Positions 1-20,159 of a DNA stretch of 64,000 nt are shown here, piece after piece. Numbering within the stretch: position 1 is the first letter of the stretch; the number at the start of each line of letters is the position of its first letter. The stretch covers positions 7,783,001-7,847,000 of the forward strand of contig NC_089429.1 of the NCBI RefSeq assembly GCF_026210795.1, in the 5' to 3' direction. This DNA comes from Rhizophagus irregularis. Its lineage: Eukaryota > Glomeromycota > Glomeromycetes > Glomerales > Glomeraceae. A program made the position numbers and the translations under genes. The notes below the pieces were generated by a model. That model ran no database searches. It had not been told where the DNA came from and was given only the letters and a program-made list of their open reading frames with translations.

Positions 1-422
1 TTATTAAACGATTAACGAAAAACCAATAGATTAATCAGGGGGTCGATCAATGCGGCTTAGCAACCAGTTTATCAAGTCCATCAATAGGAATAATTAGGAG
101 GAGTAATTATAAGCCACAAAAGATAGATTATAAGAATAACATATAAAATGGGAGCGAATTAAAATCGAATTTAATGAAAATACATAAAATATTGAAAAAC
201 AAAAAGATAATATAAAAGATAATATAAAGGATAATATGAAAAGATGATACGAAAAGATAGCACAGCCACAAAAGATGGATTATTTCTTTACGATATAATA
301 TTTGAAAGATTATGTTATTTTAAAGAAAAGATAGCACAGCCACAAAAGACAGGTTATAAATTATTTCTTTAAGATGTAATATTTGAAAGATAGAAAAGAT
401 AACATATAAAATAGTATATAAA
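1..422. repeat. Left flank: AT-rich DNA with imperfect tandem units
   Basis: No gene is seen. A unit of about 75-80 bp beginning GATAGCACAGCCACAAAAGA occurs at about 256 and again at about 330, with a partial echo near 113. The same AT-rich style (AAAGATAGCATATTAAAA) continues on the far side of the large element after 20155, so the element seems to sit inside one repeat tract. Confidence 0.6.
418..422. repeat. Candidate target-site duplication, left copy (ATAAA)
   Basis: The five bases just outside the left terminal inverted repeat are ATAAA, identical to 20155-20159 just outside the right repeat. Polintons usually make about 6-bp duplications. Both flanks are A/T-rich, so a chance match is possible. 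Confidence 0.55.
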
Positions 423-903
423 GTCGTCGGGCTGATAGTGTAGTCACTACGTTCCTCCACCTCGGCCAGGGCCTCGCAGTACCTACATCCCCCCTCCGTG
501 GGGCGGGGAATCCCTATATATCTGAAACAATATGAAACAAGATCTGAAACATAACAATATAAGCAAAAAAGGATAAAATAAGGGAAAAGAGAGGAAAATA
601 AGAGAGAATCAGAGAGGGTGTTTCGATGTTTCAGATGTTTCGGCAATTTTGGTAAAAGTCAGGCGAGGACAACCCTCCCAGAAAAAGTTTTGATTTTACC
701 CCCCAGATCTGAAACTTCTGAAACATCTGAAACTGATTCAGGATTCCGTTCGTTTTCTTATTGGAGGCAGTGAGATAGCAAATCGAGTAAACAGATAGGT
801 TAATAACCCCTAGAAGGACTGTAGAACCACAGGAGGGTAACCGGGTAGGAGCACGGATCCTTGGAAAAAATATATTCGGCAATTGAAGATTAGGTAACTA
901 TAA
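423..903 (+). repeat. Left terminal inverted repeat of the Polinton-type element
   Basis: This is the reverse complement of 19673-20154. By eye I find two substitutions and one homopolymer length change (six C at about 699 versus seven G on the right). It begins GTCGTCGGGCT. It contains many TGAAAC/GTTTCA words (for example 522-527, 545-550, 710-715, 719-724 and inverted at 626-642). It ends with a promoter-like AATTGAAGATTAGGTAACTA just before the helicase gene. Confidence 0.93.
881..890 (+). promoter_or_regulatory. Upstream motif AATTGAAGAT before helicase gene
   Basis: The motif lies 41 bp before the ATG at 932, inside the left terminal repeat. The same word precedes four other genes of the element. 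It resembles the A-rich TTGA early promoters of large DNA viruses; that link is inference. Confidence 0.6.
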
Positions 904-931
904 ATTAGTACTCGATTTGATAGAACAAAAA

Positions 932-3475
932 ATGACCACTCAAGCTCAAGTTATCCCCAAGTTCGGTGAACAAACGAAAGCCTTCAGTATCGATGAGCTT
1001 AAACGGTTTATTGTCGCTGCAAAGAGTATGAATGATCTCGATCAAGCCAAGAGGTATCTTTGCAGTTATTTCATTCTCTGTGCAGATCCTCATGGGGTTT
1101 TCTGGTGGGACCCGGATAGTAAAAGTTTGAAACACGTTATTGACAAAAATATTGGTAAACTTATCCGTCCAATCACGAAGACATTCTACACACAACCTGA
1201 ACAAGGACCCTCTCAAAAGACCGAGTTCAACATCTACAAGTGGTTTATGGTCGAGAATACCGATGTATGTAATGCAACCTGTGATCCCCATAAACAGCGA
1301 ATCTTCAGATCCTTAACCGGCCAACTCTATCTAAATATCTTCCCGGGATTCCTCCACGTCTTACGTCCGATATCTACCTTTGAGTCTACAATTCACCTCG
1401 CGGTTAAATTTATCTTCTCTCGCATTCAGGATATCTGGTGTTCGGGTGATTGGAATCTCACTGAGTATATCATCAAGTGGTTAGCCGGTGTATCTGCTGG
1501 AAGGAAGATGTACTCGATCCTTTACCTGAAATCTGGACAGGGTTGGGGCAAAGGTATTATAACAGATTTCATTCAGCGCAGCGTCCTAGGCACTCAACTC
1601 GTTTATAAGACCAGCGATCCTCAAACGATTCTTGGAAGTTTCAATGGGCAATTACAGGGTAAGGTTCTTCTTCTCCTCGAGGAAATGCCCACGGAAAAAA
1701 GCCAGTGGAATAATCTGTATCGCTCTTTAAAGGATAAGGTAACGAGTGACATAATAGAAATCCATGAAAAATACAAGACGCCAACACATTACAAAAACTT
1801 TATGTCAACTATCGTCCTAACCAACGAAAATGCTCTCAGAGTGGAGAACGATGATAGGCGCACAGTGTTCTTGGATGTGTCACCATCCCGTAAGGGAGAC
1901 CTCAACTACTTCAAAAAACTCGGTGACGCTATGAAATACCCAGGCGCCAGTGAGGCGTTCTATGCTTATTTGAGACCCATCGGGCGTGATGCTTACCCGG
2001 ACTTCAATGGAAATCCGCCACCTATGACAACATCCAAACAGGAACATATCATCTCGACTCTTCCACCGCTATTCCAATTTATAAAGGACACTTACCTCGT
2101 AGTGAAAAATTATATGACCGACCTACCTGTTCAAGAATTTTATAGGGTATATACTTCATATTGCGAAACTCATTGCATTTCACCCCTATCAAAGATAAAC
2201 GCTTCTAGAATTCTATCAAATGAGTTGGGTATAAATAGCAAAGTAGTACGCAAGGGTGGAAAAACACCACGGGTTTACAGCATATCCAGGGAGGACCTCT
2301 ACAAGAAGTTCTTCGGCAAAAACTGGATCCACGAAACAGAAGAGATAGACATAGAAGGAATCGATATAGAGACTTCTAAAAAACCTGCATCAGACCCCAA
2401 AGCCTTGGAGAAGTTCTTGGCAAATATATATAATCCAGCCAACAATCCACAAGACGTACAAGAGAAACCCGCTGAGGAAAAACCTGCTGAGAAAAAACCC
2501 GAACCCGCTGAGGAAAAACCCGCTGAGGAAAAACCCGCACCTGTAATTCGCAAGACTCCTCCACCGCTTCCACCCAAGCCTGACCACTTAAAAGAACGTC
2601 CACAAGAGTTAAGGGAAGAACAACCGGATCCCGATGAAGATACTAGTGAGTCAAACACCGATGAACCTATAGATAACTTCTCAGACTGTTATCTATCTGA
2701 CGAGGAATCTGCTGAGGTTCTAGTTCCTGAAAAACCGTCTACCCCCGAGCCAGATAACTATGACATCTTAGACGACTTATTATCAGACTCGGATTCTACA
2801 ACCATGGACCCAACTCCTGAACAACAATCCGAGTCTCCCGCAGAATCTTCTGCATCTGTCACTAAGCCTGACCCAGAACCGGCTCCTGAAGAGCAATTTA
2901 TCCCAGAACCCGACACAGAACCAGAAGTTGACCGGGATCCTGAACCAAAGGAAGGCACTCGAGCGCATTGGGCTTGGCATGAAAGACACCGATGGGATCG
3001 CAAACCGTGGGTTAAAAATTCAAAAGACCAGGCCTTCGATGATCTCTACAATACAAGTAAGGAATTATGGGCCAAGTACCAAGACGCGTCAGACGAATAT
3101 GACTGGGAAATACTCGCGTTTAAAATAGAGGAATGTCCCACAATGCGTATTGAGGACGAGTACCAGTACTACCTTATGGAGGTAGTAGACCGCTTCAAGG
3201 ACTGGATCGAATATAATGGATACTTACCTAAAATACCTAGCCGTAAAGAACTCGCAGATTTAATAAGAATATACAAGGATAATCGTGATGCTGAGATTAT
3301 TCCCACCCCCTCTGGTTATGAAACTATGAGGGCAGATAAGGGTAAAGCGCGAGAGATCCCCGAGGAACGTCCAAAAACTGATATGGAACGTGAATGGGAA
3401 GCCGCCAATGGACTCATCGATGACTGGGATGAAGAGGGTCTTGATCGTGTATGCAGCAAGATTGACTCCTTTTAA
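932..3475 (+). CDS. SF3/DUF5906-type replicative helicase, about 847 aa
   Basis: This is the likely DNA-unwinding ATPase of the element's replication. The first in-frame ATG is at 932; an upstream TTG at 917 is less likely. A Walker A loop SGQGWGKG lies near residue 200 and a Walker B strand GKVLLLLEEMP near residue 245. A polar motif-C-like strand (TIVLTNEN) and a DDRRTVFLDVS segment follow, the arrangement known for DUF5906/virus-type superfamily 3 helicases. Walker A ends in GKG rather than GKS/GKT, which occurs in that family. No primase catalytic motifs were recognised in the N-terminus. From about residue 510 the protein is Pro/Glu-rich with a tandem EKPAEE repeat, then a long acidic region and a Trp-rich C-terminus. 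The reading frame is intact, driven from the terminal repeat. Confidence 0.85.
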   Translation: MTTQAQVIPKFGEQTKAFSIDELKRFIVAAKSMNDLDQAKRYLCSYFILCADPHGVFWWDPDSKSLKHVIDKNIGKLIRPITKTFYTQPEQGPSQKTEFNIYKWFMVENTDVCNATCDPHKQRIFRSLTGQLYLNIFPGFLHVLRPISTFESTIHLAVKFIFSRIQDIWCSGDWNLTEYIIKWLAGVSAGRKMYSILYLKSGQGWGKGIITDFIQRSVLGTQLVYKTSDPQTILGSFNGQLQGKVLLLLEEMPTEKSQWNNLYRSLKDKVTSDIIEIHEKYKTPTHYKNFMSTIVLTNENALRVENDDRRTVFLDVSPSRKGDLNYFKKLGDAMKYPGASEAFYAYLRPIGRDAYPDFNGNPPPMTTSKQEHIISTLPPLFQFIKDTYLVVKNYMTDLPVQEFYRVYTSYCETHCISPLSKINASRILSNELGINSKVVRKGGKTPRVYSISREDLYKKFFGKNWIHETEEIDIEGIDIETSKKPASDPKALEKFLANIYNPANNPQDVQEKPAEEKPAEKKPEPAEEKPAEEKPAPVIRKTPPPLPPKPDHLKERPQELREEQPDPDEDTSESNTDEPIDNFSDCYLSDEESAEVLVPEKPSTPEPDNYDILDDLLSDSDSTTMDPTPEQQSESPAESSASVTKPDPEPAPEEQFIPEPDTEPEVDRDPEPKEGTRAHWAWHERHRWDRKPWVKNSKDQAFDDLYNTSKELWAKYQDASDEYDWEILAFKIEECPTMRIEDEYQYYLMEVVDRFKDWIEYNGYLPKIPSRKELADLIRIYKDNRDAEIIPTPSGYETMRADKGKAREIPEERPKTDMEREWEAANGLIDDWDEEGLDRVCSKIDSF

Positions 3476-3558: not shown

Positions 3559-5412
3559 ATGGTTTATTCAGAGATTGTCCGTGCTTTACCTACAAGACCG
3601 GATATCAAAGAATTACAGTATTCAGGCGCAAGATTTTCCAGAGGAGCAATAGCAAAACTTGGACAGCGACTCCAATCCCGGTATCCAACACATAAGTTCC
3701 AGATCCTACTTCCCTATGAAAACTGGAAACCCGGTGGATGGACATCAGGAAACTAACCAGCCAGCCTCTTTTCACTATTAGACCACTACGACGAAGCACA
3801 ACTACCGGATGACGCAGACCCTGATTATTTTGAACGATTCATAATTTATGTGAGAGATGCCCCACCGGTTGCAGGGGGTTGCAACGGGGAGCTAAATGAT
3901 TGCCTGTATGAATGCCTGAAATATATCTACGGCACATTCTCTAAAATGCCAAAGTCAATCGAAAAGCCCGAGTATATCAAAAAGGCATTAGGTCTCAATC
4001 GTGATGCTTCCATCCCAGTTTCATGCATGGACAAGGTTGAACAACTCGCAGGAAGTCTCGCAATTAATATTGTGGGGGACATTACCCGAATCTCTAAGAG
4101 TAAGTCCGATAGACGTGCGACTCTCATCCTGTCAGAAGGCCATTACTCCCTCGCGTTAAATCCCGGAAGACTCCACTCCAGTAAATTAGATAAAAAGCGT
4201 AATTTACCCATTGTATACCATGAAGATGGGACCAATAATGTAGTCACAATATACAACGGCAAAACGGTTAAGTCTTGCACAATTGCGCAGTTTCAAAAAA
4301 CTAAGAATTCCAAAAGTTCTTTCATCCCCGTCGAGAAAAACCGTAAGACTGGAGTATATGAAACTCTTGAAGAAGCATATCAGAGAATCCACGAGGAGCG
4401 GAATTCCTTTCTACAGGAGACAAAGAAGTTCGGTTTAGGAATCGACTTATCATACCATAACTGGTCTTACAAAAGAACGGCTCTCTGGTTATTCGAACGA
4501 TTAAGTGTAGGGATTCCAGCCAATGATCCTCTTGACCCGATAGAAGCAGAGTGGTTAAGTGATGCAATGATGGGAGGATTAATCTGGGCAGATAACGAGT
4601 GGAAGGGCTATGGAAGACAGTACGATGCAACAAGTTTATACCCGAGTATTCAACAATCGAATGCAAACTTTCCAATCAGACGGGGTAAATTCCAGACACT
4701 TAATAACTTTGTTGACCACAGGGGTTATACCTTGTATGGATTATTCCGTGCCAAGGTAAGTGGGAATAATATTCTCTTCCGACAGAATAAAAGGGGAATC
4801 TATACATTCATCGACTTACAACGAGCAAAAAAACTTGGTCTCAATATACAGTTAATACAGGATGGGAAGCCAAATGCATTGATATATGATAGAGAAGCGA
4901 GAATCCCTGGAACTGTAATATTCGGTGAGTATGTACACTTCCTCTTCAAAATTAAAAACCAGGGTGGCGTAGCTGGCCGCATGGCAAAGCGAGTCCTCAA
5001 CACATTATGGGGAGCATTATGCCAGAGGAAGCGTAATTACAAGACACTCACCGCAGATCAAACAGACCCGTTTACATTTCCAGAGGGCCATACACTCGAC
5101 TCTATCATACCAGTAGGATCTGACCAGTGGCGATTCCAGTTCACAAACCCGGGTAATCCCTTCAAAGGTGAGTATCCCAGGATCGCCCCATTCTTATTAG
5201 CACGTGGTCGCAAAATCACATCTGAGGCAATTCAACCATACAAGAATAAAGTACGACGTATCCATACGGATGGATTTATTTTAGAAGAGCAGCCAGATAG
5301 CCCCGCGCTTTTCACTTGTTCAGAGAATGCAGATACGACTCTAAAGACTTTCAAGTTTGAAACCGCGGGATACTGCCATGTGAAAAATGCGAACAAGGTT
5401 ATCTGGACATGA
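3559..5412 (+). pseudogene. polB: Compact family B DNA polymerase with one in-frame stop
   Basis: Frame 1 is open from ATG 3559 to TGA 5410-5412 (about 617 codons) except for TAA at 3754-3756. The sequence continues sensibly across that stop, so it is probably a nonsense change or recoding. Polymerase motif A is seen as YDATSLYPSI, motif B as KRVLNTLWGAL, and motif C as HTDG in place of the usual DTDS. The region before motif A holds GGCNGELNDCLYECL and later GHYSLALN, a Cys...His pattern I recall from N-terminal domains of some viral polymerases and loosely like OTU proteases; its function is unknown. I could not identify 3'-5' exonuclease motifs. It is shorter than typical Polinton polymerases of 1000 residues or more. 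It probably copies the element, perhaps protein-primed as in Polintons. Confidence 0.82.
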
Positions 5413-6082: not shown

Positions 6083-6555
6083 ATGTCAACATATACCGAA
6101 TTCACAAGCATTGTTAACAGCACTGACAGCACTAATGAGGAGGTTATTTACGAGGCATCGCGCATACAGCCTAGTGTTATCTCTGACGAAACTGTCCCCA
6201 AGATTATCCGCGCATTAAAAGATACTATAGTAGTCGCATTAGTATCTGGGTTTAGCAAAACCAGTTACCTCGTCCAGGACCACGTGAAGTATATCAAGCG
6301 AATCCAAATGGCAAATTCTCCTGTATCATATGTGAAGTTCGTGGCCAGAAAACTCTTCCCAGATAATGCGGCATATACTGCTAAAATAGCAAAAATCCGC
6401 GAATCATACAAGAATAAACAAGCTCTCCTAGATAAGCTTCGGAGGCCCTCTTCGAATTGTATTATAATGCGACTAAGGACTCATCAACCGGTCCTCCAAA
6501 GCGAGCTATTACTAAAAACGAGGCTGAGAAAACCTTAACAGAACTTCTTGCATAA
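6083..6555 (+). pseudogene. Unknown small protein, frameshifted near its C-terminus
   Basis: The frame from ATG 6083 encodes a helical protein with no domain I recognise. It runs on to TAA 6538, but after about 6440 its residues look unnatural. The -1 frame from about 6440 to TAA 6553-6555 instead gives EALFELYYNATKD and a lysine/glutamate-rich end finishing LTELLA, far more protein-like. A one-base deletion (or -1 frameshift) near 6440 is therefore likely. The intended product would be about 157 residues. It is flanked by the element's upstream motif and a downstream T-run, supporting a real gene. No function is assigned. Confidence 0.55.
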
Positions 6556-7070: not shown

Positions 7071-7131
7071 ATGGACTCAACAGGAGTAAGCATTTTGTAC
7101 TTGACTTTCGTAGGAATTACCCTGCAGAGTC

Positions 7132-7140
7132 ATATTTTTT
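7132..7140 (+). terminator. Gene-end T-run ATATTTTTT
   Basis: The run lies 62 bp after the stop at 7070. Beyond it the DNA changes character, where the LINE-associated region begins. Confidence 0.35.
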
Positions 7141-10500: not shown

Positions 10501-12149
10501 GTTCAAGTTCTCGATGGCGCTGGTTTTTTCCAATCTATCGCTGCTCACGCTCATGGAATTATTCACAATTGGCCTTCTTCTACAAGAGCTGAAATTGCCG
10601 CTATACATGCTGCTCTTACAGTCACTCCCCCCTTTTCAACGGTCACTATTCATACTGACTCTCAATCTGCCATAGAGGGTCTTCGTCTATGTGCTACCTT
10701 TTCTTATTCCAACAGTAGGCTTTATTACAAGACCACTAATTTTGAACTCTGGGCTATTATTGAACGTCTCATTTCATCAAAATTTTTGTCCGTCACGGCT
10801 GTCAAAGTGAAAGGTCACTCTGGTAATTTCTACAACGACTACGCGGACTCTTTGGCCAACTCTGCGCATACCTCTTCTTCAGCAATTCTTCTTTCTGATC
10901 TGGATCAAGTATCTCCTCACGATTTCTTATTAAAATATGATGATATTTTATGCGAATCTAACCCACGACGCCTATTTAAGCAATATTCGCAAATGCTGTG
11001 GATGCATAGATTAACGCGTTTATCGCGGTTTAACTTTACCATTGCTTTATCTTCTACCTCAGATTTCGTGATTGATTGGGATCTTACCTGGTTCTCTTTA
11101 AACTCTGAACCTCAGCATGACGCTTCTTTTACTCGTGCTCATGCTTCCTCTCATCGCACCTTCAAATTCAAACTCTTTTTGGAAGATTTACCTACTTTGG
11201 AACATCTTAAAAGAATTCGCCCGGACTTATATATCGACATCTTATTGTGTCGTTCATGTCTCGACTCCAAGGAAGATTTCATGCACTTGTTTATGTGCAA
11301 ATGTAGACGAATCGCTATGGAACAGATTCTCCTTTTCTACCAACATCATTTTATCATCAAACTTCAAGAAGCTGGTGATCTCGTTAAGAAAGATCCCTCT
11401 TTAATTATTAACAAATTTAAATCTCTTCCTTGTTGGTCCTTCTCTTCTTCGAATTGGACTTCATATAGTCTCGTCCGTGGCTGCCTTCCGTTATCCTTTG
11501 TCGAATTTTTTGAAGAACTTTCTATTCCACGTAACTCTGCGATGAAGGTTATCTCTGCTATCCACAATCACTTTATCCAAAAGATCAGAAAACGAATTTG
11601 GCTACCGCGCTCCTATGATAAATCTAAATGGGAAGACGTGATGAATATTACTCATAAACTCAAACTTTCTCGGCCTTCAAATTTGCCAAAGTCCACGTAC
11701 TTACCTTTCTCAACTTTACCTCCTCCGACCCTTTCCGACGCCGCACGTGACTCCGACGTTGATTATTTAAAAAACTCGATGAAATATGGTTTGCCTTGGT
11801 TTAATCACTATTCGGGTTTTATGGGTCGTCTAACGGTGCAACTTACTAACAGCTTTAGCAGGGTGGTGTGTCGATTTTAACAATGGGCGCATTGTTCGTT
11901 GGTTTGTTTGCATAGTTGCTTCTTCTTAGGTTGGAATATATCTAGGCGGGGGATCAGAATAGTTTTAGTGTTATGCGATTTTTTCCTTTTCGAATTAATT
12001 TTATAGCTTTATTACTGTTTTGGAGACTATATAGTTTTGTTTTTAGTTAATTTTATTTTTCCTTTTTTGTACTTTGAAAATTTTATTTTATTTTTGTAAG
12101 TTCGTTAAATAAATTTAATAAAGATAAAGGCTACTATGCCATATTTGCC
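7501..12149 (+). mobile_element. LINE-type non-LTR retrotransposon, probably 5'-truncated
   Basis: A reverse transcriptase plus RNase H gene (7554-11880) with an A/T-rich 3' tail ending in AATAAATTTAATAAAGATAAAG (12107-12129 region). The word TTGACAAGGACTGATNAC occurs at 7483-7500 and 12150-12167, a candidate target-site duplication with one mismatch. The word also belongs to a small tandem array on the 5' side, so the exact limits are uncertain. The insertion falls in the gap between one gene's end signal and the next gene's promoter motif, leaving the host element's genes uninterrupted. Confidence 0.75.
7554..11880 (+). pseudogene. LINE reverse transcriptase-RNase H polyprotein, one frameshift
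   Basis: Frame 0 is open from ATG 7554 to TGA 8091-8093 and reads into the start of the RT domain (LMPNDKASGPS). The protein then continues in frame 1 (YEMLKHLG onward) to TAA 11880, so one base is gained near 8083-8090. RT motifs seen are DISKAFDSVD (motif A), GIDQGEVISPLLW (motif B) and FMDDST (catalytic F-x-D-D, near 8799). An RNase H domain follows with YTDGS (about 10441), RAEIAAIHAAL, HTDSQSAIEG and NDYADSLA, giving the four acidic residues. A C-x2-C...H-x4-C finger (CRSC...HLFMCKC) lies near 11250. No N-terminal apurinic-type endonuclease is present, consistent with 5' truncation; an endonuclease-less lineage is the alternative. It would copy its RNA by target-primed reverse transcription. 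Confidence 0.88.
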
Positions 12150-12187
12150 TTGACAAGGACTGATGACGATGTCACTTGGTTATTGTA

Positions 12188-12197
12188 AATTGAAGAT
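12188..12197 (+). promoter_or_regulatory. Upstream motif AATTGAAGAT
   Basis: Exact copy, 36 bp before ATG 12234, followed by AACAATTAGGTA, which echoes the TTAGGTAACTA next to the terminal-repeat copies. Confidence 0.58.
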
Positions 12198-12233
12198 AAC
12201 AATTAGGTATGTAGACACGTACAGAAAAAAGAC

Positions 12234-12818
12234 ATGTCATACCCTTATATAACTAATCCTATAACTGGACGTCCAATCCGTGTTGGTGGAGATACCTTTA
12301 ATCGAATAGTTATGGAATCCCATGATTATATCGATGGAAGGCTTGTCCGTAGACAAACCGTACCGCCTCCACCCCAGGAACAACCTGTATATTTAAATAC
12401 AGATACAGGACGCTATATTCAACACGGTACTAGAACGTATCATAGACTGGTTGAGAGTGACTACGAGGTAGTTGAGGACTACTACCTTGTTCATTCTGAA
12501 GAGGAGGAGCTTATAGAGGAAATCATCAATGAAACGCGCTATAATGAGGAAAATCTTGATGGCCAGCGGTTAACTTTTAATGATATACAACAAATCAGAG
12601 CCGCTATTCAGGCTGACCAAGATGAATATGATGATTTTATCTTACAGCAAGATACGACTAACGGGACACCTTCCTCCGGTCCTTCCGGTCGTCCACGAAC
12701 TTTGGAGGACCATGCCCCGAGACTTGCAGAGCTTAATATTGAGTTGTGTAGGGAATGTCTCATGCCTGTGAGCCCAAGTGACTTAACGGACAAGTTGTGC
12801 AAGGACTGCGCTTCCTAA
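12234..12818 (+). CDS. 194-aa protein with two adaptor-like repeats and a zinc ribbon
   Basis: The N-terminus reads NPITGRPIRVGGDTFNRIV and, about 40 residues on, NTDTGRYIQHGTRTYHRLV. These are two copies of the N-x-x-TGR-x-I-x-x-G-x-x-T-(F/Y) pattern known from the '2-cysteine adaptor' domain of iridoviruses, mimiviruses and relatives, though the cysteines are not conserved here. An acidic helical middle follows. The C-terminus has LCRECLMPVSPSDLTDKLCK, a C-x2-C...C-x2-C zinc-ribbon pattern. The frame is intact, with an upstream motif and a T-run at 12881. Role unknown; in large DNA viruses this adaptor is found beside many enzymatic domains. Confidence 0.62.
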   Translation: MSYPYITNPITGRPIRVGGDTFNRIVMESHDYIDGRLVRRQTVPPPPQEQPVYLNTDTGRYIQHGTRTYHRLVESDYEVVEDYYLVHSEEEELIEEIINETRYNEENLDGQRLTFNDIQQIRAAIQADQDEYDDFILQQDTTNGTPSSGPSGRPRTLEDHAPRLAELNIELCRECLMPVSPSDLTDKLCKDCAS

Positions 12819-12880
12819 TGGTCAGTCCTCCGGTCCTCTGGTCTTCCGGTCTTTCCAACGGTTGATCCCTTAATGCCAGT

Positions 12881-12892
12881 TATTTTTTTTTA
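12881..12892 (+). terminator. Gene-end T-run TATTTTTTTTTA
   Basis: The run lies 62 bp after the stop at 12818, before the next gene's variant upstream motif (TATTTAAAGATAAC, 12906-12919). Confidence 0.35.
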
Positions 12893-12978
12893 TACAAATG
12901 ACAGGTATTTAAAGATAACAATATATAAAAAAGATTGTGAAGGATACTAAGTGAGCGAATAATCAAAGAAAGATAGCC

Positions 12979-13515
12979 ATGTCAACATCAATCGTAATAA
13001 ACCAGTGTCAGAACTGTGGAGTATTCTCTGCAAAAGCGGCATATAGAGGATTATCCAGCGTGTTGTATAGACAGATTATAAAGAAGATTGGTGACGAGAG
13101 TGAACCTTTACAAGCCTTGGGATTTGCCAGGGATAAGTTGGTCCAGATTATCCGTCGGGCAAGTAATGCGGATTTTACGCAATTATTCACACAAAGACTA
13201 GATATGAAAATTATGGACGGAGATTCATACGAGGATACTAGGAAGTGGCTTCTTGAACAGCTTATAGCCATTGGATGTGACAGTGGGGAAATTGCCTTAT
13301 ATCAGTTCTTACGGAATATATACCCGGATGGTATTGACGAACCCTTTACTACATTCTATGAGAACTATGTAAATCATGTAAGAAATCTGATGACTAAGAA
13401 CTTTGCTTCTCGAGCCTTAGGAGCTATTGGATTAAAAGCTAGGATGCTACGGATTGACTTCGAAGGACGTAAAAAAAGCGCCATGATTCTTAGGGCTTCT
13501 GCGAAGTTAACGTGA
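12979..13515 (+). CDS. Unknown 178-aa protein with N-terminal CxxC
   Basis: The frame is intact from ATG 12979 to TGA 13513-13515. The N-terminus carries CQNCG, which might bind metal with other residues. The rest is predicted helical, with no motif I recognise. It ends 26 bp from the convergent packaging ATPase gene. In Polintons and virophages genes beside the packaging ATPase are often virion proteins, but this one is too short and helical to suggest a jelly-roll capsid. It could be a small structural or assembly protein; that is a guess. Confidence 0.55.
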   Translation: MSTSIVINQCQNCGVFSAKAAYRGLSSVLYRQIIKKIGDESEPLQALGFARDKLVQIIRRASNADFTQLFTQRLDMKIMDGDSYEDTRKWLLEQLIAIGCDSGEIALYQFLRNIYPDGIDEPFTTFYENYVNHVRNLMTKNFASRALGAIGLKARMLRIDFEGRKKSAMILRASAKLT

Positions 13516-13541
13516 GATGGGTTGCTAAAGCAACCAGATTC

Positions 13542-14732
13542 TTACAAAATACTATTGATCCCTACTCGTAATGCTCGACGGTCCATATGACCCTTAGAAA
13601 AGATCTGTAAAAGGACCCCGATGCCTTCTATTATTTTTTTATTATCCAAAGGGTGACTAGACTTTAGGACTTCATATCGGAAGAATAACTCCTTTACGGT
13701 CTCAGATTTTGGAATTTCAGTCTTCGCGGTCCTATCCCGTACTTTTGCTAAGAATTTTTGGAAGTCTGATCCCAGGGTTTTACCAGATAGTCCGTAGGCT
13801 TCCCGAAAGACGTACTTAATCCAGGTATCTGCGTTCTTAGCTATAATACCAGATACGAGGAGGTGTTTTCTCTCTTTAGGTGATGGATATTCCCGAGCAA
13901 ACTCAATTAGCTGGGAGGACTTTTTTGCTTCAGCTACAGCTTTCTGGCCATAAGGACTAAACTTTGATCGAACTGGGTTCAAACTCGGATCGAACGGGGA
14001 TTGAACTGAGTTCGAACTAGGATTGAACTGAGATTGATCAGTGATCGAACTGAGACTAGTATCCCATCTAACCCGAATAGATAACGGATCGCTCTTGGAT
14101 CTTCTAAGATCAAATACTATAAATTCGCGTTGTAGAGTAAGGTCATCGATTACTGGAGCTAGTGACTCCGATTCTTCTGTATACTGGCGGATGATCCTCT
14201 TAGTATCGGTCAAACTTCCGTGACCTCCATGTAGGGAAATATAATTCACATTTTCACGAATAGCCTTGGGAATGGTAAAGAATCTTTGGGCCACATAGAT
14301 ACACGAGATATTTTTGTGACGCCCGTGTGTAAAAAATCCAGTGATGAGATCCTGGGTTTTTTTAGGCGCATCCATCAAATCCTCGAAGATTACCACAGTA
14401 GCCTGGGTGGAGTTGAAGTCCTTAACATTTGGAATCTCACTATGGGATACTGCGGTAAACGGAATTTCTTCTTCTTTGAAAAAATCACGTACGACTGCCC
14501 ACTTCGGTTCATCGAGGTATCTGCTAACTAGAATTACCGCATCACATAATATGTACCTTTCGCCATCCTCCTTTGCCTTCTTGTCTCCCATTAACAAATT
14601 AATAATCATAGTTGTCTTACCCGAGTCAGAACTTCCTGCTACGGCAAGACGGAAAGGCCATGATGGGGCAAACTCATTACCCTGTCTCGAGTCGGTCGTG
14701 TACTCGTCCAAATTGTATACATAAAGATCCAT
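13542..14732 (-). CDS. A32/FtsK-like genome-packaging ATPase
   Basis: A 396-residue protein starts at ATG 14732. Walker A is VAGSSDSGKTT (near residues 31-41) and Walker B is ATVVIFEDLMD (near 110-120). A GRHKNISCIYVAQRFFTIPK segment follows, typical of the A32 packaging ATPases of poxviruses, virophages and Polintons, which pump DNA into preformed capsids. The C-terminal third is less conserved and includes short SQFNPSSN/SPFDPSLN repeats. The frame is intact. It is convergent with the 178-aa gene and divergent from the Gag cassette, only 31 bp separating the two start codons. Its presence implies that a particle was, or is, packaged. Confidence 0.88.
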   Translation of the reverse strand: MDLYVYNLDEYTTDSRQGNEFAPSWPFRLAVAGSSDSGKTTMIINLLMGDKKAKEDGERYILCDAVILVSRYLDEPKWAVVRDFFKEEEIPFTAVSHSEIPNVKDFNSTQATVVIFEDLMDAPKKTQDLITGFFTHGRHKNISCIYVAQRFFTIPKAIRENVNYISLHGGHGSLTDTKRIIRQYTEESESLAPVIDDLTLQREFIVFDLRRSKSDPLSIRVRWDTSLSSITDQSQFNPSSNSVQSPFDPSLNPVRSKFSPYGQKAVAEAKKSSQLIEFAREYPSPKERKHLLVSGIIAKNADTWIKYVFREAYGLSGKTLGSDFQKFLAKVRDRTAKTEIPKSETVKELFFRYEVLKSSHPLDNKKIIEGIGVLLQIFSKGHMDRRALRVGINSIL

Positions 14733-14763
14733 TTGAATTTTATTCTATCTTAGTTTAAATACG
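14733..14763. promoter_or_regulatory. 31-bp divergent promoter between packaging ATPase and Gag cassette
   Basis: The start codons at 14732 (-) and 14764 (+) are separated by 31 bp of AT-rich sequence. Any promoter must be shared or lie inside the coding regions. This spacing leaves no room for a long terminal repeat on the left of the Gag cassette. Confidence 0.45.
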
Positions 14764-15469
14764 ATGTCGACACCAATTGCAATTTATACTCCTTCAGAGC
14801 CTACTGGACCGCCTCCCTAGGGATTTGCGTGATATGAATAATATACCATTAGTTGCGGTAATTAAGGATCTAACAGATTTTTTAACTGTCAGTGATCGCA
14901 TGGTTGTTAATCGAGATGTACAAAATGCAAACCATCGTCTTAAACATGCTCTTAATTTATTAATTCATCGCTGTAGAGAAACATATGAAGAACGCGATAT
15001 ATTAAAAGCAGAACGTGATCGATCTCGAAAAGAACGTGATGAATTACAAGATGAACTCGAGGTTCAAACGGGTTTGTTAGGTCTTACACAAGATGAGCTA
15101 AATAACGTACAAGATACTATTACTAGTTTAGAAGCTAATTTGGCTGAATTGGAACATGAGTTTGGTGGTATGCGGACGACTAATCGTCGTCTTCAGCAGC
15201 AATATAATCTTATGAGAGGAGAACATAATAGAGCTATAGGTGAACGTAATAGAGCTATAGGCGAGCGTGATGTGGCACGAAATCGGCTTGTATATGCCAA
15301 TAATCGGGTTCTTTTTGGAATTCGGACATTGGGACGTCTTAGGAATCGACTTTTCCAACAAATAGCCGCTCTGCGTATCCAAGTACAATGGTTTCGGATT
15401 AGACAATTGAACCCTCCTCCACCTCCTCTCAACCATCCACAAAATACGATATGGCTGCCGTTGGTATAG
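14764..15469 (+). pseudogene. N-terminal coiled-coil part of Gag-like protein, frameshifted
   Basis: ATG 14764 encodes MSTPIAIYTPSEPTGPPP and stops at TAG 14818. The +1 frame then reads RDLRDMNNIPLVAVIKDL and stays open to 15469, so one base appears gained near 14815. The body is a long charged coiled coil with ERD/ERN heptads (residues roughly 70-200), ending in a proline cluster (NPPPPP). The next frame begins MAAVGIAAPIFHG at 15451, the usual start of the Gag capsid-like part. The reading shifts -1 between 15403 and 15469, either by an old one-base loss or by restart at the overlapping ATG. I associate this coil-proline-Gag architecture with a large family in Rhizophagus. Confidence 0.65.
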
Positions 15470-16947
15470 CTGCCCCCATATTTCATGGTCGGGAAGATGA
15501 AGATCTTAATCTTTTTATTGATAACTTTTTAGGGTATATTAATACCGTTGGTATTGATCCATTAGACGATGCCGGTGCGCCTCCGGGTCGGGTGCGAGCG
15601 ATGGGGGTTCTTCGTAGCTGTATGAGAGATGAAGCGGCGAGGTGGTTTGATGCAGAACTTACTGGAAAAAATTGGGAACTCTCGAATATTCGGTTAGTGG
15701 CTACTGCAAATGGTGGAGCCGGTACTACTCGCCGAGCGTTCAGAGCTTTAGCTGTTCCTGAGGTTGCTAATGGATTACATGTTGGTACTTACTTACCCGG
15801 GTCTGATGCTGATGTATATTCAAGGGTTGCAGGTAATGCGGCGGTAACCGTTGGAGATGCATTTTTCCCATCACGCGCTGATATCGTTAGAACGAATTTT
15901 AAAGTTGAAGAGCAGTAGAGGCGTGCGGGCGGACGTCCTACTCATCAACCCGTTAATGGGTTGGGAAATCATGGAGGTCCATTTAATGCTGCTGCCCAGA
16001 ATCAACCAATAGTCTTACAGGGGATTCTCCTGGATCAAGCATTTATGCATATGCGTACAAATTTTCCAACCGTCGTGGAAGAAAGACTTCAGATACGATT
16101 TAGTAATCTTTACCAGGAACAAGGTGAACCTGTTCGATCTTACTATAAGCGAGTTGAGAGGGCTGGGGATATTGTAGGATATAATCGAATTATGGTTACT
16201 GACCAGTTCTATAGAGGACTTTTGCCGGAAAACGTTATTGAAGCTTCCAGAATCGGGGCGGCACCTCTTAATACATTAATCGATAGATTAAGTGATCTTG
16301 AGCGACGAAAGGGCGAAATGTTCTATGGATTACAAAGGCGTCAGGGTATTGAAAAGGCTAAAAAAGAGGAATTGGCTGGCTATACTCATCCCGCGACTCC
16401 ACACGAAGGTGCTGTAATACAAAGGTCGACAGACGTTATTACTCAAGAACGATTACAAGAATTGCTCAAGGCACAAGCCGAGGAACTTACCAAGAATTTC
16501 CAGGCACAATTTAAACAATTACAAGCATCTAAGCCAGTTCGTAAACCACCGGTCTATAGACAACAGATTAAACCTGTTCGGCCAAAGCCACGGCCACGCG
16601 TTGTTCAGGATCATCAGGATCCTGATTGGGATGATGGTTATGTAGATCATAATTTTGGTGATGACCCTGGTGACCCTGATGCTCCTGAGTGGACTAGTGA
16701 GGATGATCAACATGTTATTGATCTTATTATGGGATATGAGACGTCTAAAAGATTTCCAAAGAGACTTCAGAAGGCTAAAGATAGACGCGATGATCTGGAA
16801 TTAGCCCGAGCAATGAGAAACCTCGATCTTAATGATGATGCTATGGATATTGATACTAATACCGCGAGTTTTGATGACTTGAAAATTGTTCCCGATGAGG
16901 AAGGTGGTTTTCGGATTTGTGCGGTTCGAAGTACAAAAAAAAAGTAA
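15451..16947 (+). pseudogene. gag: Gag-like capsid protein with in-frame TAG
   Basis: Frame 1 is open from ATG 15451 to TAA 16947 except TAG at 15916-15918, in text reading EEQ-stop-RRAGGRPT. The N-terminal half (APIFHGREDEDLNLFIDNFL, then a conserved DEAARWFD) matches the Ty3-type retrotransposon Gag pattern of a helical capsid domain. The second half has the QGEPVRSYYKRVERAG and FYRGLLPENV segments of the Gag C-terminal capsid domain. A basic/proline linker and an acidic tail follow; no CCHC zinc knuckle is seen. The TAG could be a nonsense change (from TGG, for example) or a readthrough codon. Known role of the family: self-assembly of shells around nucleic acid. Confidence 0.72.
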
Positions 16948-17666
16948 ACTCAGATAAGGGTGTAAGTATCTCGAAACTTCTTAAATCTGTTCCAAAAAAA
17001 TCAGTTAAAATGACTCCTATTAAGATTCCTGTGAAGGTTACTAGTAGTAAGCCCACACTTATAAAAGCCGTCACCAAAAATGATTCATTAAGTTTATTAA
17101 GGTCTGCAGATTTTAGAAAATTACTCCGCGAGATTCTTCGGGAAGAATTAAAGTCTGCTCGTAAAAGTACGGAGATTCCGGAAGACCTAGTTGAGGAAAA
17201 ACAAGAAGAGGATATCAGGGAAGATGACCCGATGGATATTGACGTAGCTCGTTTGGAGAATACTAAAGATCTTTTAGCGCTGGATGGGAAGGTCAATGGG
17301 ATAGCAATTCAGTGTTTAGCAGACACTTGTGCTAACGCGTCTTTTATTCAGAGGGAAGCCGCTGAAGAATTAGGGTTGGATATCGACAAGAGTATTACAC
17401 ATAACATATCCGGCGCTCCGGGTTCTGGTAGGACATTCGGCATGGTAAAAGGTGTGTCAATCAAACTAACCCCTGATTGTGTAATCACTGAGAATCTCGC
17501 GGTTTTAAGCGATTACAAGCATAGGGAGATTGGATTGAGCCGGACGTGTCTGAAACGTTACAATTATGATGTCCATGAATCACGCGAACATATCGCCCTT
17601 ACTTGTAATGAGAAGAATGTTTTTATCCCGATAGTTTCTGATGTGAATCGAGGAGACAAAAAATAG
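16917..17666 (+). pseudogene. pro: Retropepsin-like aspartic protease, -1 frame relative to Gag
   Basis: Gag ends ACA AAA AAA AAG TAA at 16947 and the protease frame lies -1, overlapping across a run of nine A. A single -1 slip on A-AAA-AAA joins the two. The protease has AIQCLADTCANASFI with the putative catalytic Asp at 17322-17324; the usual D-T/S-G is D-T-C here. It continues through a flap-like ISGAPGSGRTFG and ends with HREIGLSRTCLKRYNYDV, similar to fungal Gag-protease proteins I recall. There is no reverse transcriptase behind it. The stop at 17664-17666 lies 14 bp from the convergent integrase stop. It would process Gag if active; the Gly-to-Cys change makes activity uncertain. Confidence 0.68.
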
Positions 17667-17688
17667 GGAATATTTATTTTTTATTCCC
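17666..17688. terminator. Bidirectional hairpin spanning two stop codons
   Basis: GGGAATA (17666-17672) pairs with TATTCCC (17682-17688) around a T-rich loop. One arm starts in the protease TAG, the other overlaps the integrase TAA (17681-17683). The loop holds TTTATTTTTT, like the other gene-end runs on the plus strand. Confidence 0.5.
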
Positions 17689-18772
17689 AAAATTTGCGAA
17701 TTAAATCGGGAACATCCTCCTCCAACCGGTCAGCGGGTTCCCAAGTGGCTTCGGTATCTGGGTATCGTTCCCACTTGATTAGATACTGGTCTTGACCCTT
17801 CCTGATGCGATGCCGGAGTATCCGCTCAGGTACAAATCTTTCAGGTTGCCCTCTTATCACGGAATCAGGTGGGGGATATTCATTTTCTGGAACAATCTGC
17901 AACTCTTTTTGGGTGTACGCACATCTGGATACACCTAGTCGCCCGTGTGGTCCATCAAGAAGATATGTAGGAGGTTGTTCGGGTGAGAGTATCATTTTTT
18001 TGATGACACGGATATTGGGATTCCATCTTATGTCTCCTGTACGAAATTTTCCATGAAGTTTATTACCGAGTACTGAGATAGGTTCATCTAACTTTACTCG
18101 GACTCGCATTCCTTCAGAGAGAAGTTCCGTCTTTTTTGACACCTTGGGTGACCCAGTCGGAATGTCTGGAGGATTTCTTTGCCAGATTTCATCTATTTTA
18201 CTAACCACATCATGGAAATCTTCTGACCATTCCACGGATGTCACCCCAGTCTTCAACTCCTGTGCCACCATTCGTTTTAGGAGAGGTTCCTGGATTGCTT
18301 GGATGGCTCGTTCAGCATATGATTGCTGTTTGTGTCTTCCTGGTTCGCCGAACCTCATCATCACCCCTAGGCTGTTCAGGAAAAAATCACGTACCTGATC
18401 ATTGGTGAATTCTGATCCGGAGTCTGTCTCTATTCGATGTGTTGGTGGCTTAATGCGATTTCTTCTGTAGATTTTAACAAATCCATTGAGAACCTTATTT
18501 GCGGTTTTATCCTTTAGGGGCTCTGCATCGACTCGTTTACCCGCGACTTCTACCACTACGAGGAAATAGTGGAATTTTTTGGGGTCGACTGGCATCTCTG
18601 CGAGATCTGCCTGATGCGTCGCATTTGGTTTCCATACAACTACTCGTGGACGCTCTGATGACTTCTCCTTTAGGGGCTTTTTGTATAGGTTGTAGTGCTC
18701 CTCACCTTTTAGAATTCGTGCTGGTACTCCGGAGAAATTGTAGTATTTGTAATAATTCTCTAAATGCGACAT
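17681..18772 (-). CDS. int: RVE-family integrase with C-terminal chromodomain
   Basis: The first ATG is at 18772, giving about 363 residues (an upstream TTG at 18808 is less likely). The DDE catalytic triad is visible as HQADLAEM, ETDSGSEF and SYAERAI, with about 36 residues between the second Asp and the Glu. After a linker the C-terminus reads RILRHRIRKGQDQYLIKWE then YPDTEATWEPADRL, a chromodomain with its Tyr-Trp-Trp cage residues, which in Polintons and chromoviruses guides insertion by binding modified histones. The classic N-terminal HHCC finger is not evident. The frame is intact. It inserts the element and would make the short target duplication seen at the ends. Confidence 0.92.
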   Translation of the reverse strand: MSHLENYYKYYNFSGVPARILKGEEHYNLYKKPLKEKSSERPRVVVWKPNATHQADLAEMPVDPKKFHYFLVVVEVAGKRVDAEPLKDKTANKVLNGFVKIYRRNRIKPPTHRIETDSGSEFTNDQVRDFFLNSLGVMMRFGEPGRHKQQSYAERAIQAIQEPLLKRMVAQELKTGVTSVEWSEDFHDVVSKIDEIWQRNPPDIPTGSPKVSKKTELLSEGMRVRVKLDEPISVLGNKLHGKFRTGDIRWNPNIRVIKKMILSPEQPPTYLLDGPHGRLGVSRCAYTQKELQIVPENEYPPPDSVIRGQPERFVPERILRHRIRKGQDQYLIKWERYPDTEATWEPADRLEEDVPDLIRKFWE

Positions 18773-18816
18773 ATTACGACAAATTAAAGGAAAGATTTTG
18801 GACTTCAAATCTTAAG

Positions 18817-19137
18817 ATGACACGATTTTACTGCCTAAAGTGTAAAAAGGAAACCGAAACTGCTAGTGAAATACAAGATATGACCACAAATGGGCGTTAC
18901 CGGCTGCATGGTGATTGCACAGTTTGTGGTATGCATAAGAATACTTTTACTGGGATAGACTGGGTTATCAAAAAGAAAACCAAGGAGAAGAAAAAAGAAA
19001 CTGCGGCTAAAAGACATCAGACGGCGTACAATCGGCAATGCAAAAAACTCGGGCAGAAAATCTTAGATTCTGATGACACGTGTAAGCAGTGTATTGATAA
19101 ATGCCTTAAGGAGGCAAAAAAGAGGAAGACGGATTAG
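18817..19137 (+). CDS. 106-aa zinc-ribbon/basic protein, DUF5679-like
   Basis: ATG 18817 starts MTRFYCLKCKKETETAS. With TNGRYRLHGDCTVCG this gives a C-x2-C...C-x2-C ribbon of the kind annotated DUF5679 in Polintons, adintoviruses and other DNA viruses. A very basic lysine-rich helix follows, then a second CKQCIDKC cluster. An open frame reaches upstream to 18499, but that part overlaps the integrase gene and is a shadow of it. The start is 44 bp from the integrase ATG, so the promoter is shared. Likely a DNA-binding core or virion protein; the exact role is inference. Confidence 0.7.
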   Translation: MTRFYCLKCKKETETASEIQDMTTNGRYRLHGDCTVCGMHKNTFTGIDWVIKKKTKEKKKETAAKRHQTAYNRQCKKLGQKILDSDDTCKQCIDKCLKEAKKRKTD

Positions 19138-19146
19138 TACCGCCTT

Positions 19147-19662
19147 CTAAAAGTATTCCTCATCATCTGAGTCATCGAGAGATACCTCTCCATCATCTGA
19201 TTCATCATCCGAGTCGTCAGGAGTGTGACCTTCCTTAAGCAATTGGATGTTGTACGTTATTTGAGTCCATTTCTCCCAGTCGGACCCTTGCGTTATAAAG
19301 CCGCATCTGAGGAGTGCTCTTTCTATTACTACCATCCCTGCAAACCTGGTGTATTTTTTCTGATCGGCTTCATTGAAATTGTCAATGGCTTCCTTGTAGT
19401 AGTCTACTGCCTGTTTGTATACCTCTTCGGCTTCTTTATGCCGCTTCCACAACTCAGCTTTACAACAGTTATACCAGAGTCTGTTAATCTTGAGATGTTT
19501 TCCGAATTCTTTAACCGGAAGGTTTCTGACCATCTCTGCTACTATATCCGGGTCATTGAGGGGTGATGCCCGAATTTGGATCCATTTACGGATTCCATAG
19601 ATGTCTACAAGATCAAGCCCGAGGTCTTCGGCAAGAGAAGTGGCGGCGTGTAAGTTTATCAT
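19147..19662 (-). CDS. Second F-box-like protein with acidic tail, 171 aa
   Basis: The N-terminal half contains DPDIVAEMVRNLPVKEF, then KINRLWYNCCKAELWKR, which fits the F-box pattern (hydrophobic-I-LP...N-R-x-W...LW-(R/K)). A helical, TPR-like stretch (AEEVYKQAVDYYKEAIDNF) follows and the C-terminus is strongly acidic (DDSDDESDDGE...DDSDDEEYF). Start ATG 19662 lies only 10 bp inside the right terminal repeat, whose AATTGAAGAT motif faces it. The frame is intact. It may recruit the host SCF ubiquitin ligase. F-box assignment is by pattern only. Confidence 0.62.
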   Translation of the reverse strand: MINLHAATSLAEDLGLDLVDIYGIRKWIQIRASPLNDPDIVAEMVRNLPVKEFGKHLKINRLWYNCCKAELWKRHKEAEEVYKQAVDYYKEAIDNFNEADQKKYTRFAGMVVIERALLRCGFITQGSDWEKWTQITYNIQLLKEGHTPDDSDDESDDGEVSLDDSDDEEYF

Positions 19663-19672
19663 TGTATGTTAC

Positions 19673-20154
19673 TTATAGTTACCTAATCTTCAATTGCCGA
19701 ATATATTTTTTCCAAGGATCCGTGCTCCTACCCGGTTACTCTCCTGTGGTTCTACAGTCCTTCTAGGGGTTATTAACCTATCTGTTTACTCGATTTGCTA
19801 TCTCACTGCCTCCAATAAGAAAACGAACGGAATCCTGAATCAGTTTCAGATGTTTCAGAAGTTTCAGATCTGGGGGGGTAAAATCAAAACTTTTTCTGGG
19901 AGGGTTGTCCTCGCCTGACTTTTACCAAAATTGCCGAAACATCTGAAACATCGAAACACCCTCTCTGATTCTCTCTTATTTTCCTCTCTTTTCCCTTATT
20001 TTATCCTTTTTTGCTTATATTGTTATGTTTCAGATCTTGTTTCATATTGTTTCAGATATATAGGGATTCCCCGCCCCACGGAGGGGGGATGTAGGTACTG
20101 CGAGGCCCTGGCCGAGGTGGAGGAACGTAGTGACTACACTACCAGCCCGACGAC
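19673..20154 (-). repeat. Right terminal inverted repeat of the Polinton-type element
   Basis: Reverse complement of 423-903 with three visible differences (about 20143, the G-run at about 19872, and about 19742). It carries the same TGAAAC-type iterated words and ends GACGAC next to ATAAA. Confidence 0.93.
19686..19695 (-). promoter_or_regulatory. Upstream motif AATTGAAGAT (minus strand) in right terminal repeat
   Basis: Mirror image of the copy at 881-890, lying 23 bp before ATG 19662, so both terminal genes use the same repeat-borne promoter. Confidence 0.58.
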
Positions 20155-20159
20155 ATAAA
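20155..20159. repeat. Candidate target-site duplication, right copy (ATAAA)
   Basis: Matches 418-422 directly outside the opposite end. Confidence 0.55.

What the first reader, a model, noticed from the sequence alone, without database searches (positions are those of the whole stretch)
14764..17666. Polinton-type element with a retroelement Gag-protease cassette in the capsid slot
The element has Polinton polymerase, helicase, packaging ATPase and integrase but no recognisable double-jelly-roll or minor capsid and no adenovirus-like protease. Between packaging ATPase and integrase sits a coiled-coil/Gag/retropepsin-like cassette without reverse transcriptase. It is 31 bp from one neighbour's start codon and 14 bp from the other's stop, so no LTRs and no sign of a later insertion. 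This suggests replacement of the DNA-virus capsid module by a retroelement Gag module: a DNA element possibly packaged by Gag. I know of no described example.
Basis: partly seen in the sequence, partly recalled or inferred. Interest (0 to 1): 0.88.

Follow-up and report, generated by a model that had tools for sequence, protein, structure and literature searches.

The report
Polintons carrying a retrovirus-like Gag-protease module
Large virus-like DNA transposons of a mycorrhizal fungus have no recognisable DNA-virus shell gene and instead carry, next to their DNA-packaging motor, a shell-and-protease gene pair of the retrotransposon kind, which suggests a DNA element that may package itself in a retrovirus-type shell.

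Summary
The element spans 423-20154 (TIRs, 5-bp TSD). Its Gag-like gene is a remote relative of Ty3-type Gag: 30 of 46 homologues match Retrotrans_gag (E<=0.5, best 5e-4); profile-profile 94.5%, E 8e-8, shuffles at noise. The retropepsin is confirmed (3e-8). In the genome, 94 of 104 close-family packaging-ATPase places have this Gag within 3.5 kb, all divergently transcribed; 13 of 28 distant ATPases have a far-diverged Gag (14 not examined). Against this, 51 of 68 rows of the other Gag families have no ATPase row within 15 kb. Relatives occur in three orders of Glomeromycota. An A-run frame shift joins Gag and protease in the families compared. Gag, protease, ATPase and integrase are jointly under purifying selection. 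A 15.3-kb LINE-free sister with 99.5% identical TIRs and a shown empty site, and a second copy, leave no room for a double-jelly-roll capsid in subfamilies A and B. Earlier work lists this fungus's Polintons as lacking a detectable capsid gene; I found no description of Gag in Polintons. That Gag encloses element DNA is inference (about 0.4).

The parts
418..422 (.). target-site duplication ATAAA, left (right copy 20155-20159)
   Evidence: same 5-bp length as TSD ACAGA of the C3 sister copy
423..903 (.). left terminal inverted repeat
   Evidence: (98.4% over 498 bp), trimmed by the TSD
917..3475 (+). SF3-type helicase (DUF5906) with a long C-terminal part without Pfam match
   Evidence: Pfam 2.1e-17
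3850..5412 (+). family B DNA polymerase, N-terminally shortened frame in this copy (626 aa open in L046)
   Evidence: DNA_pol_B_2 1.8e-6; L046
5464..5967 (+). small protein, unknown, weak IQ-motif match
6083..6538 (+). small protein, unknown (156 aa in L045)
12234..12818 (+). small protein, sub-threshold 2-cysteine adaptor match
   Evidence: 2C_adapt 9e-4 (cut-off not reached)
12979..13515 (+). small protein, unknown (186 aa in L046)
13542..14732 (-). packaging ATPase (A32/FtsK type)
   Evidence: Pox_A32 8.3e-11; 37% identical to the distant family-C ATPase
14764..15469 (+). coiled-coil gene upstream of Gag; frame shifted in this copy, 234 aa open in 18 of 30 A loci; fused to Gag in families C and D
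15451..16947 (+). Gag (Ty3-type capsid-like N- and C-domains with an inserted stretch between them); one in-frame stop in this copy
16935..16947 (+). A-run plus G with stop directly behind it: putative -1 frameshift site joining Gag to protease
16917..17666 (+). retropepsin-like aspartic protease, -1 frame relative to Gag
   Evidence: Asp_protease_2 3.1e-8
17681..18808 (-). integrase (rve) with chromodomain
   Evidence: rve 5.8e-9, Chromo 1.9e-17
18499..19137 (+). zinc-finger-like protein (DUF5679 in residues 111-150; the true start is probably behind the integrase start)
   Evidence: 1.6e-17
19147..19662 (-). small acidic-tailed protein, unknown
19673..20154 (.). right terminal inverted repeat

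Best explanation
This is one decayed copy of a lineage of Polinton-type DNA elements, resident in Glomeromycota, whose capsid module is a Ty3-type Gag-protease pair. Shown: the Gag-Pro pair belongs to the mobile unit, is conserved over several divergent families, is kept by purifying selection, and in the families with a detected packaging ATPase lies beside it; no jelly-roll gene was found. Inferred: the coiled-coil and Gag proteins assemble a shell; a minority Gag-Pro product, made by slippage at the A-run, brings in the protease for maturation; the packaging ATPase moves PolB-made linear element DNA into the shell (or Gag condenses the DNA and the ATPase was re-employed); the integrase inserts the DNA into a new site.
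For: Gag identity: 30 of 46 homologues match Retrotrans_gag at E<=0.5, best 5.3e-4; the next family has 7. hhalign with 8 LTR Gags of the same genome 94.5%, E 8.3e-8, score 67.8, over both capsid domains; 20 column shuffles at most 18.7. With the C-type members removed, the A/B-type alignment (36 rows) still gives 93.1%, E 3.2e-7 with those LTR Gags, and the D-type alignment (14 rows, none shared with it) gives 93.4%, E 2.5e-7 with a 5-row LTR set, shuffles at most 22.9; the two Polinton sets match each other at E 1.3e-34. The LTR Gags match Arc (1e-7) and Ty3 Gag (6e-5) in the PDB. Linkage: 94 of 104 close-family ATPase places have Gag within 3.5 kb, 94 of 94 divergent; 10 of 28 distant ATPases have a C-like Gag, all divergent; of four more that I read, three have a far-diverged Gag (best rows 2.6e-26 to 2.4e-29). 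Family D joins coiled-coil, Gag and protease to an integrase and an ORF that reads like PolB by eye. Range: Rhizophagus, Entrophospora, Paraglomus. Selection between subfamilies A and B: dN/dS gag 0.42, pro 0.14, ATPase 0.08, integrase 0.06, dS 0.6-0.9. Mobility as a unit: C3 copy with 99.5% TIRs, TSD and empty site. No room for a DJR in A and B: no unassigned ORF above 204 aa other than Gag in L045, L046 and the window.
Against: Of 68 Gag rows of other families entered, 51 have no detected A32 ATPase row within 15 kb, and the two family D loci read show none in 9-9.5 kb; the ATPase searches scored only the best candidates. In families C and D larger unassigned ORFs exist (289 aa L049, 263 aa L066), so exclusion of a capsid by size holds only for A and B. 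A32-type motors are known to me only with jelly-roll shells (recalled). The protease active site is altered: DTC-A in 30 of 30 A loci, DPGA in C, though DTGS in D and DSGA in Paraglomus P0224 look regular. No zinc knuckle was matched in A or C Gags. Many copies are broken, the window's included: 13 of 30 A loci have a Gag frame of 480 aa or more. In 9 of 27 A loci with a readable A-run (8 or 11 A's) -1 slippage alone would not join the frames. No Gag scanned reaches the Pfam cut-off alone, and the A/B-type alignment against the smaller LTR set reaches only 30.4%, E 5.4e-4, score 37.0 (shuffles at most 23.1).
Confidence: 0.55

Rival explanations
1. Gag-Pro is a working part of the element but not its shell: for example a trans-acting factor that interferes with LTR retrotransposons of the same genome (as Gag-derived Ty1 restriction does, recalled), or a nucleic-acid carrier inside the cell; the element is a capsid-less transposon.
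For: The genome is full of LTR Gags (150 Retrotrans_gag matches, the scored maximum). No zinc knuckle matched in A or C and an altered protease motif in A and C fit a changed role. 51 of 68 Gag rows of other families lack a detected ATPase nearby. PMC4028283 (passages) describes Polintons without capsid genes.
Against: In PMC4028283 nine elements without MCP also lacked protease and ATPase; in A and B the ATPase is kept under strong selection (dN/dS 0.08) beside Gag. The protease is kept together with Gag across families.
Confidence: 0.27
2. An LTR retrotransposon once inserted into a Polinton and its Gag-Pro persists as a passenger, copied with the element.
For: Gag and protease are the first two genes of Ty3-type elements; the copies share ancestry.
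Against: Purifying selection; presence in several divergent families; a conserved junction; no RT or LTR remnant seen in the window copy.
Confidence: 0.05
3. A jelly-roll capsid is still present but unrecognised in another ORF, or supplied in trans by another element or virus, and Gag-Pro is an addition.
For: Several ORFs of 130-204 aa in A and B and larger ones in C and D are unassigned; MCPs were later found for some 'capsid-less' Polintons (PMC7805220, passage).
Against: No unassigned ORF in A or B is large enough for a double jelly-roll; Pfam DJR families PF21738 and PF04451 had 0 matches in the genome, but the 14 control genomes were silent too, so this is weak.
Confidence: 0.13

Closest known systems
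Polinton/Maverick elements (Polintoviricetes)
   Same: TIRs of ~0.5 kb, 5-bp TSD, PolB, rve integrase, A32/FtsK packaging ATPase, 15-20 kb
   Different: no jelly-roll MCP, minor capsid or Ulp1-type protease found; Gag-retropepsin instead
Polintons of Glomus intraradices (Rhizophagus irregularis) without detectable MCP, named in PMC7805220 (passage)
   Same: homologues of the Gag are R. irregularis proteins, so probably the same group of elements; no MCP
   Different: that paper reports only the absence; 'gag' occurs 0 times in its main text
Ty3/gypsy LTR retrotransposons (Metaviridae)
   Same: Gag with capsid-like N- and C-domains, retropepsin behind it, frame shift between them; a CCHC-like knuckle in family D (zf-CCHC 0.023, below cut-off) and by eye in L069
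   Different: no LTR, no RT/RNase H; an inserted stretch between the two capsid domains; on the other side of a 100/100 branch from 7 LTR Gags of the genome
Mavirus-like virophages / polinton-like viruses with exonuclease-less pPolB (PMC11071308, passages)
   Same: short PolB with a separate helicase gene
   Different: those belong to viruses with double-jelly-roll capsids
Ginger transposons (PMC2836005, passages)
   Same: DNA transposons sharing a Gypsy-type gene, the integrase
   Different: in the passages seen: no Gag, PolB or packaging ATPase

Membership tests
Polinton/Maverick | long terminal inverted repeats and 5-6 bp target-site duplication | tested here: met
   two copies, TSD ATAAA and ACAGA; empty site in L066 and L067
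Polinton/Maverick | family B DNA polymerase (protein-primed type) | tested here: met
   DNA_pol_B_2 1.8e-6; DNA_pol_B 4e-24 in family C; protein priming not tested
Polinton/Maverick | rve-family integrase | tested here: met
   rve 5.8e-9
Polinton/Maverick | A32/FtsK packaging ATPase | tested here: met
   Pox_A32 8.3e-11; 88 matches in the genome
[quoted passage not shown]
   not listed by Pfam for 16 ORFs at E<=1 nor for 20 ORFs of sister and related elements at E<=0.05; no ORF of sufficient size in A and B copies; folds not available. PMC4028283 (passages) shows it is not universal in Polintons
Polinton/Maverick | adenovirus-like (Ulp1) cysteine protease | tested here: not met
   no match at E<=1
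Ty3/gypsy LTR retrotransposon | Gag with capsid N- and C-domains | tested here: met
   (profile level only)
Ty3/gypsy LTR retrotransposon | retropepsin following Gag | tested here: met
   active-site motif varies
Ty3/gypsy LTR retrotransposon | reverse transcriptase and RNase H | tested here: not met
   none between Gag and integrase; the RT inside the element belongs to a separate LINE
Ty3/gypsy LTR retrotransposon | long terminal direct repeats | tested here: not met
   (20 of 39 families shown); TIRs instead

The most novel reading that the evidence does not exclude
A lineage of mobile DNA viruses of Glomeromycota whose dsDNA genome, made by a family B polymerase, is loaded by an A32-type packaging motor into a retrovirus-type Gag shell matured by a retropepsin: a DNA virus built on a retroelement capsid.
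Probability: 0.4. Interest if true: 0.95.

Novelty: new variant of a known kind. Interest (0 to 1): 0.87.

Why it matters
Polintons are thought to stand near the origin of many eukaryotic DNA viruses built on jelly-roll shells. A phylum-wide lineage in which that module is a retroelement Gag-protease would show that capsid modules can cross between the RNA-copying and the DNA-copying world, would explain why the Polintons of this fungus seemed capsid-less, and would pose a testable question: can a DNA packaging motor serve a Gag shell? It would also extend Gag re-use (Arc, PEG10; recalled) from RNA cargo to a mobile DNA genome.

Tried and rejected
Chance or misassembly: rejected by 94 ATPase-Gag pairs with fixed order and orientation. 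Later LTR insertion: rejected (no LTR or RT, selection, many families). Loss of a capsid gene through the LINE: rejected, the LINE-free sister L045 has no capsid-sized gene there. PDB searches with P0062 or the A3 profile gave only noise; the D/C-type profile A6 reached a Copia VLP protein at 0.007 and nucleocapsid knuckles at 0.16 and above, among unrelated proteins. DJR Pfam searches in the genome gave nothing, but neither did the control genomes, so they count little. Four scans of viral contigs found no relatives; records near this genome may be left out there. Gag tree: unrooted, 17 rows. The A3 and A6 alignments share four members, so their match (1.9e-58) was repeated without shared or C-type members.

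Of the 10 ATPase places without Gag within 3.5 kb, 8 have a Gag row 4.9-11.6 kb away and 2 have none within 25 kb (both lie about 3 kb from decayed protease rows). Of the 28 distant ATPases, 10 were paired, 4 were read (Gag in 3; L071 none in 5.5 kb), 14 were not examined. Of the 68 Gag rows, 17 have an ATPase row within 15 kb, 51 none. In one search one locus (L015) gave no Gag frame by my pattern, so its count is a lower bound.
Full report
The window lies in a 146.7-Mb genome of 32 contigs; its Gag matches Rhizophagus irregularis proteins at up to 97-99%, so the host is that arbuscular mycorrhizal fungus or a close relative. The element has terminal inverted repeats (98.4% over 498 bp) and runs from 423 to 20154 between 5-bp target duplications. 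Inside are a DUF5906 helicase, PolB, several small ORFs, an A32-type packaging ATPase, a coiled-coil ORF, the Gag-like ORF, a retropepsin, an rve-chromo integrase and a DUF5679 protein. A LINE of about 4.65 kb (about 7502-12149; the matching ends overlap by 19 bp on the LINE-free sister) is a separate later insertion.

Is it a Gag? One sequence alone is not convincing in Pfam: Retrotrans_gag at E 0.015-0.42 in four of the six proteins scanned, and not in the family C Gag there. As a family it is: 30 of 46 homologues match that model at E<=0.5, far ahead of any other family, best 5.3e-4. Profile-profile comparison with 8 Gags of LTR elements of the same genome gives 94.5%, E 8.3e-8 over both capsid domains, against scores of at most 18.7 in 20 column shuffles. 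With C-type members removed, the A/B-type alignment gives 93.1%, E 3.2e-7 with those 8, but only 30.4%, E 5.4e-4 with a smaller set of 5; the D-type alignment, sharing no member, gives 93.4%, E 2.5e-7 with the set of 5; shuffles stay at or below 23.1 in score; and A/B-type matches D-type at E 1.3e-34. A profile of Polinton Gags also picks out two of the six LTR loci used as controls (L061 1.3e-4, L056 5.8e-4; the others above 0.4 or not listed). The LTR Gags match Arc and Ty3 Gag in the PDB. The Polinton Gags aligned carry a stretch between the two domains that the LTR Gags lack. In an unrooted 17-row tree the 10 Polinton Gags part from the 7 LTR Gags at 100/100, also with only 197 shared columns. 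This fits a single acquisition but does not prove it.

How common is it? Searches of the genome found Gag, protease, ATPase and integrase rows in great number (123, 153, 144 and 110 matches, lower bounds). Of 104 ATPase places entered, 94 have Gag within 3.5 kb and all 94 pairs are divergently transcribed. Two subfamilies, A (the window) and B, differ by 41-47% in Gag, 15% in protease, 12% in ATPase and 7% in integrase. A search with the Gag of a far relative (family C, L048) found further families: C, where coiled-coil and Gag are one 823-aa frame; D, with a CCHC-like knuckle, protease, an F-box protein and, in L067, a neighbouring integrase and a polymerase-like ORF that Pfam does not match; and others next to distant ATPases. 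Ten of 28 distant ATPases pair with such Gags, all divergent. Of four more that I read, L068, L069 and L072 contain a Gag that the earlier searches missed (best rows 2.6e-26, 2.4e-29 and 2.1e-28); L071 does not within 5.5 kb. In L069 Gag, protease, ATPase and integrase all run in one direction, so the order is not frozen. The other way round the picture is less tidy: of the 68 Gag rows of other families entered, 51, family D above all, have no detected ATPase row within 15 kb. Their ATPase may be too diverged or split, or absent; if absent, Gag does not depend on the motor there. Database relatives come from R. irregularis, R. clarus and metagenomes, and of family D also from Entrophospora and Paraglomus, that is, with Glomerales (recalled), three orders of Glomeromycota; their gene neighbourhoods were not seen.

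Is it kept by selection? Between A and B, dN/dS is 0.42 for gag, 0.14 for protease, 0.08 for ATPase and 0.06 for integrase, at similar dS (0.93, 0.61, 0.80, 0.64), so the four genes have travelled together and Gag, though fastest, is constrained. Among close A copies the gag ratios are 0.32-0.94, as expected of young and partly dead copies. Thirteen of 30 A loci have a Gag frame of at least 480 aa and 18 of 30 an open 234-aa coiled-coil; the window copy (L009) is among those without.

How is the protease made? Gag ends in an A-run with a stop directly behind it, and the protease frame lies -1 (A: nine A's and G then TAA; C: GTAAAAAAAAAGTGA). Of 30 A loci, 17 have nine A's, 8 have eight, one ten, one eleven, and 3 were not matched; by arithmetic ten A's put both in one frame, and eight or eleven would need another shift. 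In B copy L047 and D copy L067 Gag and protease are in one frame; L066 and L067 differ by one A. The same place and kind of junction in families whose Gags differ by two thirds is best read as a programmed or tolerated slippage site. Annotated gene models seem instead to splice across it (by eye), so splicing is an alternative.

Does it move as a unit? A LINE-free A copy on contig C3 (L045 with L070) is 15.3 kb, has 99.5% identical TIRs over 433 bp and sits inside a family D element; L066 and L067 show the empty site. Mavericks are among the recently expanded families of this species, with numerous copies of low methylation (PMC8647823, passages).

Is a jelly-roll hidden? In L045 the ORFs between PolB and position 9000 are 204 aa or shorter and include a sub-threshold F-box and an adaptor-like protein; the last 1 kb before the ATPase was not fetched for this copy but is covered by the window (178 aa ORF) and by B copy L046, whose largest unassigned ORF is 193 aa. 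The only unassigned large protein besides the C-terminal part of the helicase ORF is Gag itself. Double-jelly-roll proteins need more (recalled). Single-jelly-roll pentons cannot be excluded without folds, and in families C and D ORFs of 263-352 aa remain unassigned.

Literature. PMC7805220 (passages) names Polintons of Glomus intraradices (R. irregularis) as having no detectable MCP and says none was found there. PMC4028283 (abstract and passages) ties the loss of MCP in nine elements to joint loss of protease and ATPase. I looked for 'gag' in the main text of 15 papers. It occurs 0 times in PMC7805220, PMC4028283, PMC4409740, PMC11071308, PMC11075540, PMC3671162, PMC4642659 and PMC10120064. 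In PMC12220804, PMC2836005, PMC6431247, PMC8547959, PMC10328495 and PMC10175614 it occurs only in other senses, for LTR or Ngaro elements, in an abbreviation list or in references, and in PMC8647823 once, in an annotation filter. Ten searches of the open-licence library listed no title or abstract start describing Gag in a Polinton; one search listed 25 of 34 papers holding polinton, gag and capsid, most of which I did not open; subscription papers are mostly not held.

Verdict. That the module exists, is old and is conserved: about 0.95. That it is the element's particle-forming module: about 0.55. That the particle carries the element's DNA: about 0.4. I rate it a new variant of a known kind on the evidence held, and categorically new if DNA-filled Gag particles are found.

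Noticed in passing
window 917-3475 against L045 1868-4360 and L046 6712-9215: By eye, the N-terminal helicase part of the window copy differs wholly from that of two sister copies while the C-terminal part is nearly the same, as if helicase domains were exchanged between elements.
   Followed up: no
window 7502-12149: A LINE with RVT_1 and RNase H is nested in the element, with about 19 bp duplicated by comparison with L045.
   Followed up: partly
L048 1813-2871 (-); L069 3536-3898 (+): Distant Gag-Polintons carry a coiled-coil protein with a strong transmembrane stretch or a short transmembrane ORF (hydropathy 2.6 and 3.0) near Gag or ATPase: possible membrane or envelope part.
   Followed up: partly
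protease of subfamilies A and B; family C: The catalytic motif reads DTC-A in 30 of 30 A loci and DPGA in family C, but DTGS in D: a variable retropepsin active site in genes that are under purifying selection between A and B.
   Followed up: partly
L045 7548-7952; L066 5413-5925: F-box proteins (F-box 0.008, below cut-off; F-box-like 1.5e-6) are carried by two different element types: possible handle on host ubiquitin machinery.
   Followed up: no
L068 4538-6187; L072 1774-3369; L049 54-716; L069 5876-6415: A cysteine-rich domain with a nuclease-like look by eye is fused to the integrase in two elements and stands alone in two others.
   Followed up: no
L045 4445-6297; L046 4748-6628: PolB is short (626 aa in L046) and by eye carries an OTU-like cysteine motif before the polymerase motifs, with little room for an exonuclease, like the derivative described in PMC11071308 (abstract passage).
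   Followed up: no
L069 76-1134; L066 7007-9355: A CCHC-like knuckle follows Gag in family D (zf-CCHC 0.023, below cut-off) and by eye in L069, but was not matched in A or C, suggesting loss of the nucleocapsid motif in part of the lineage.
   Followed up: partly
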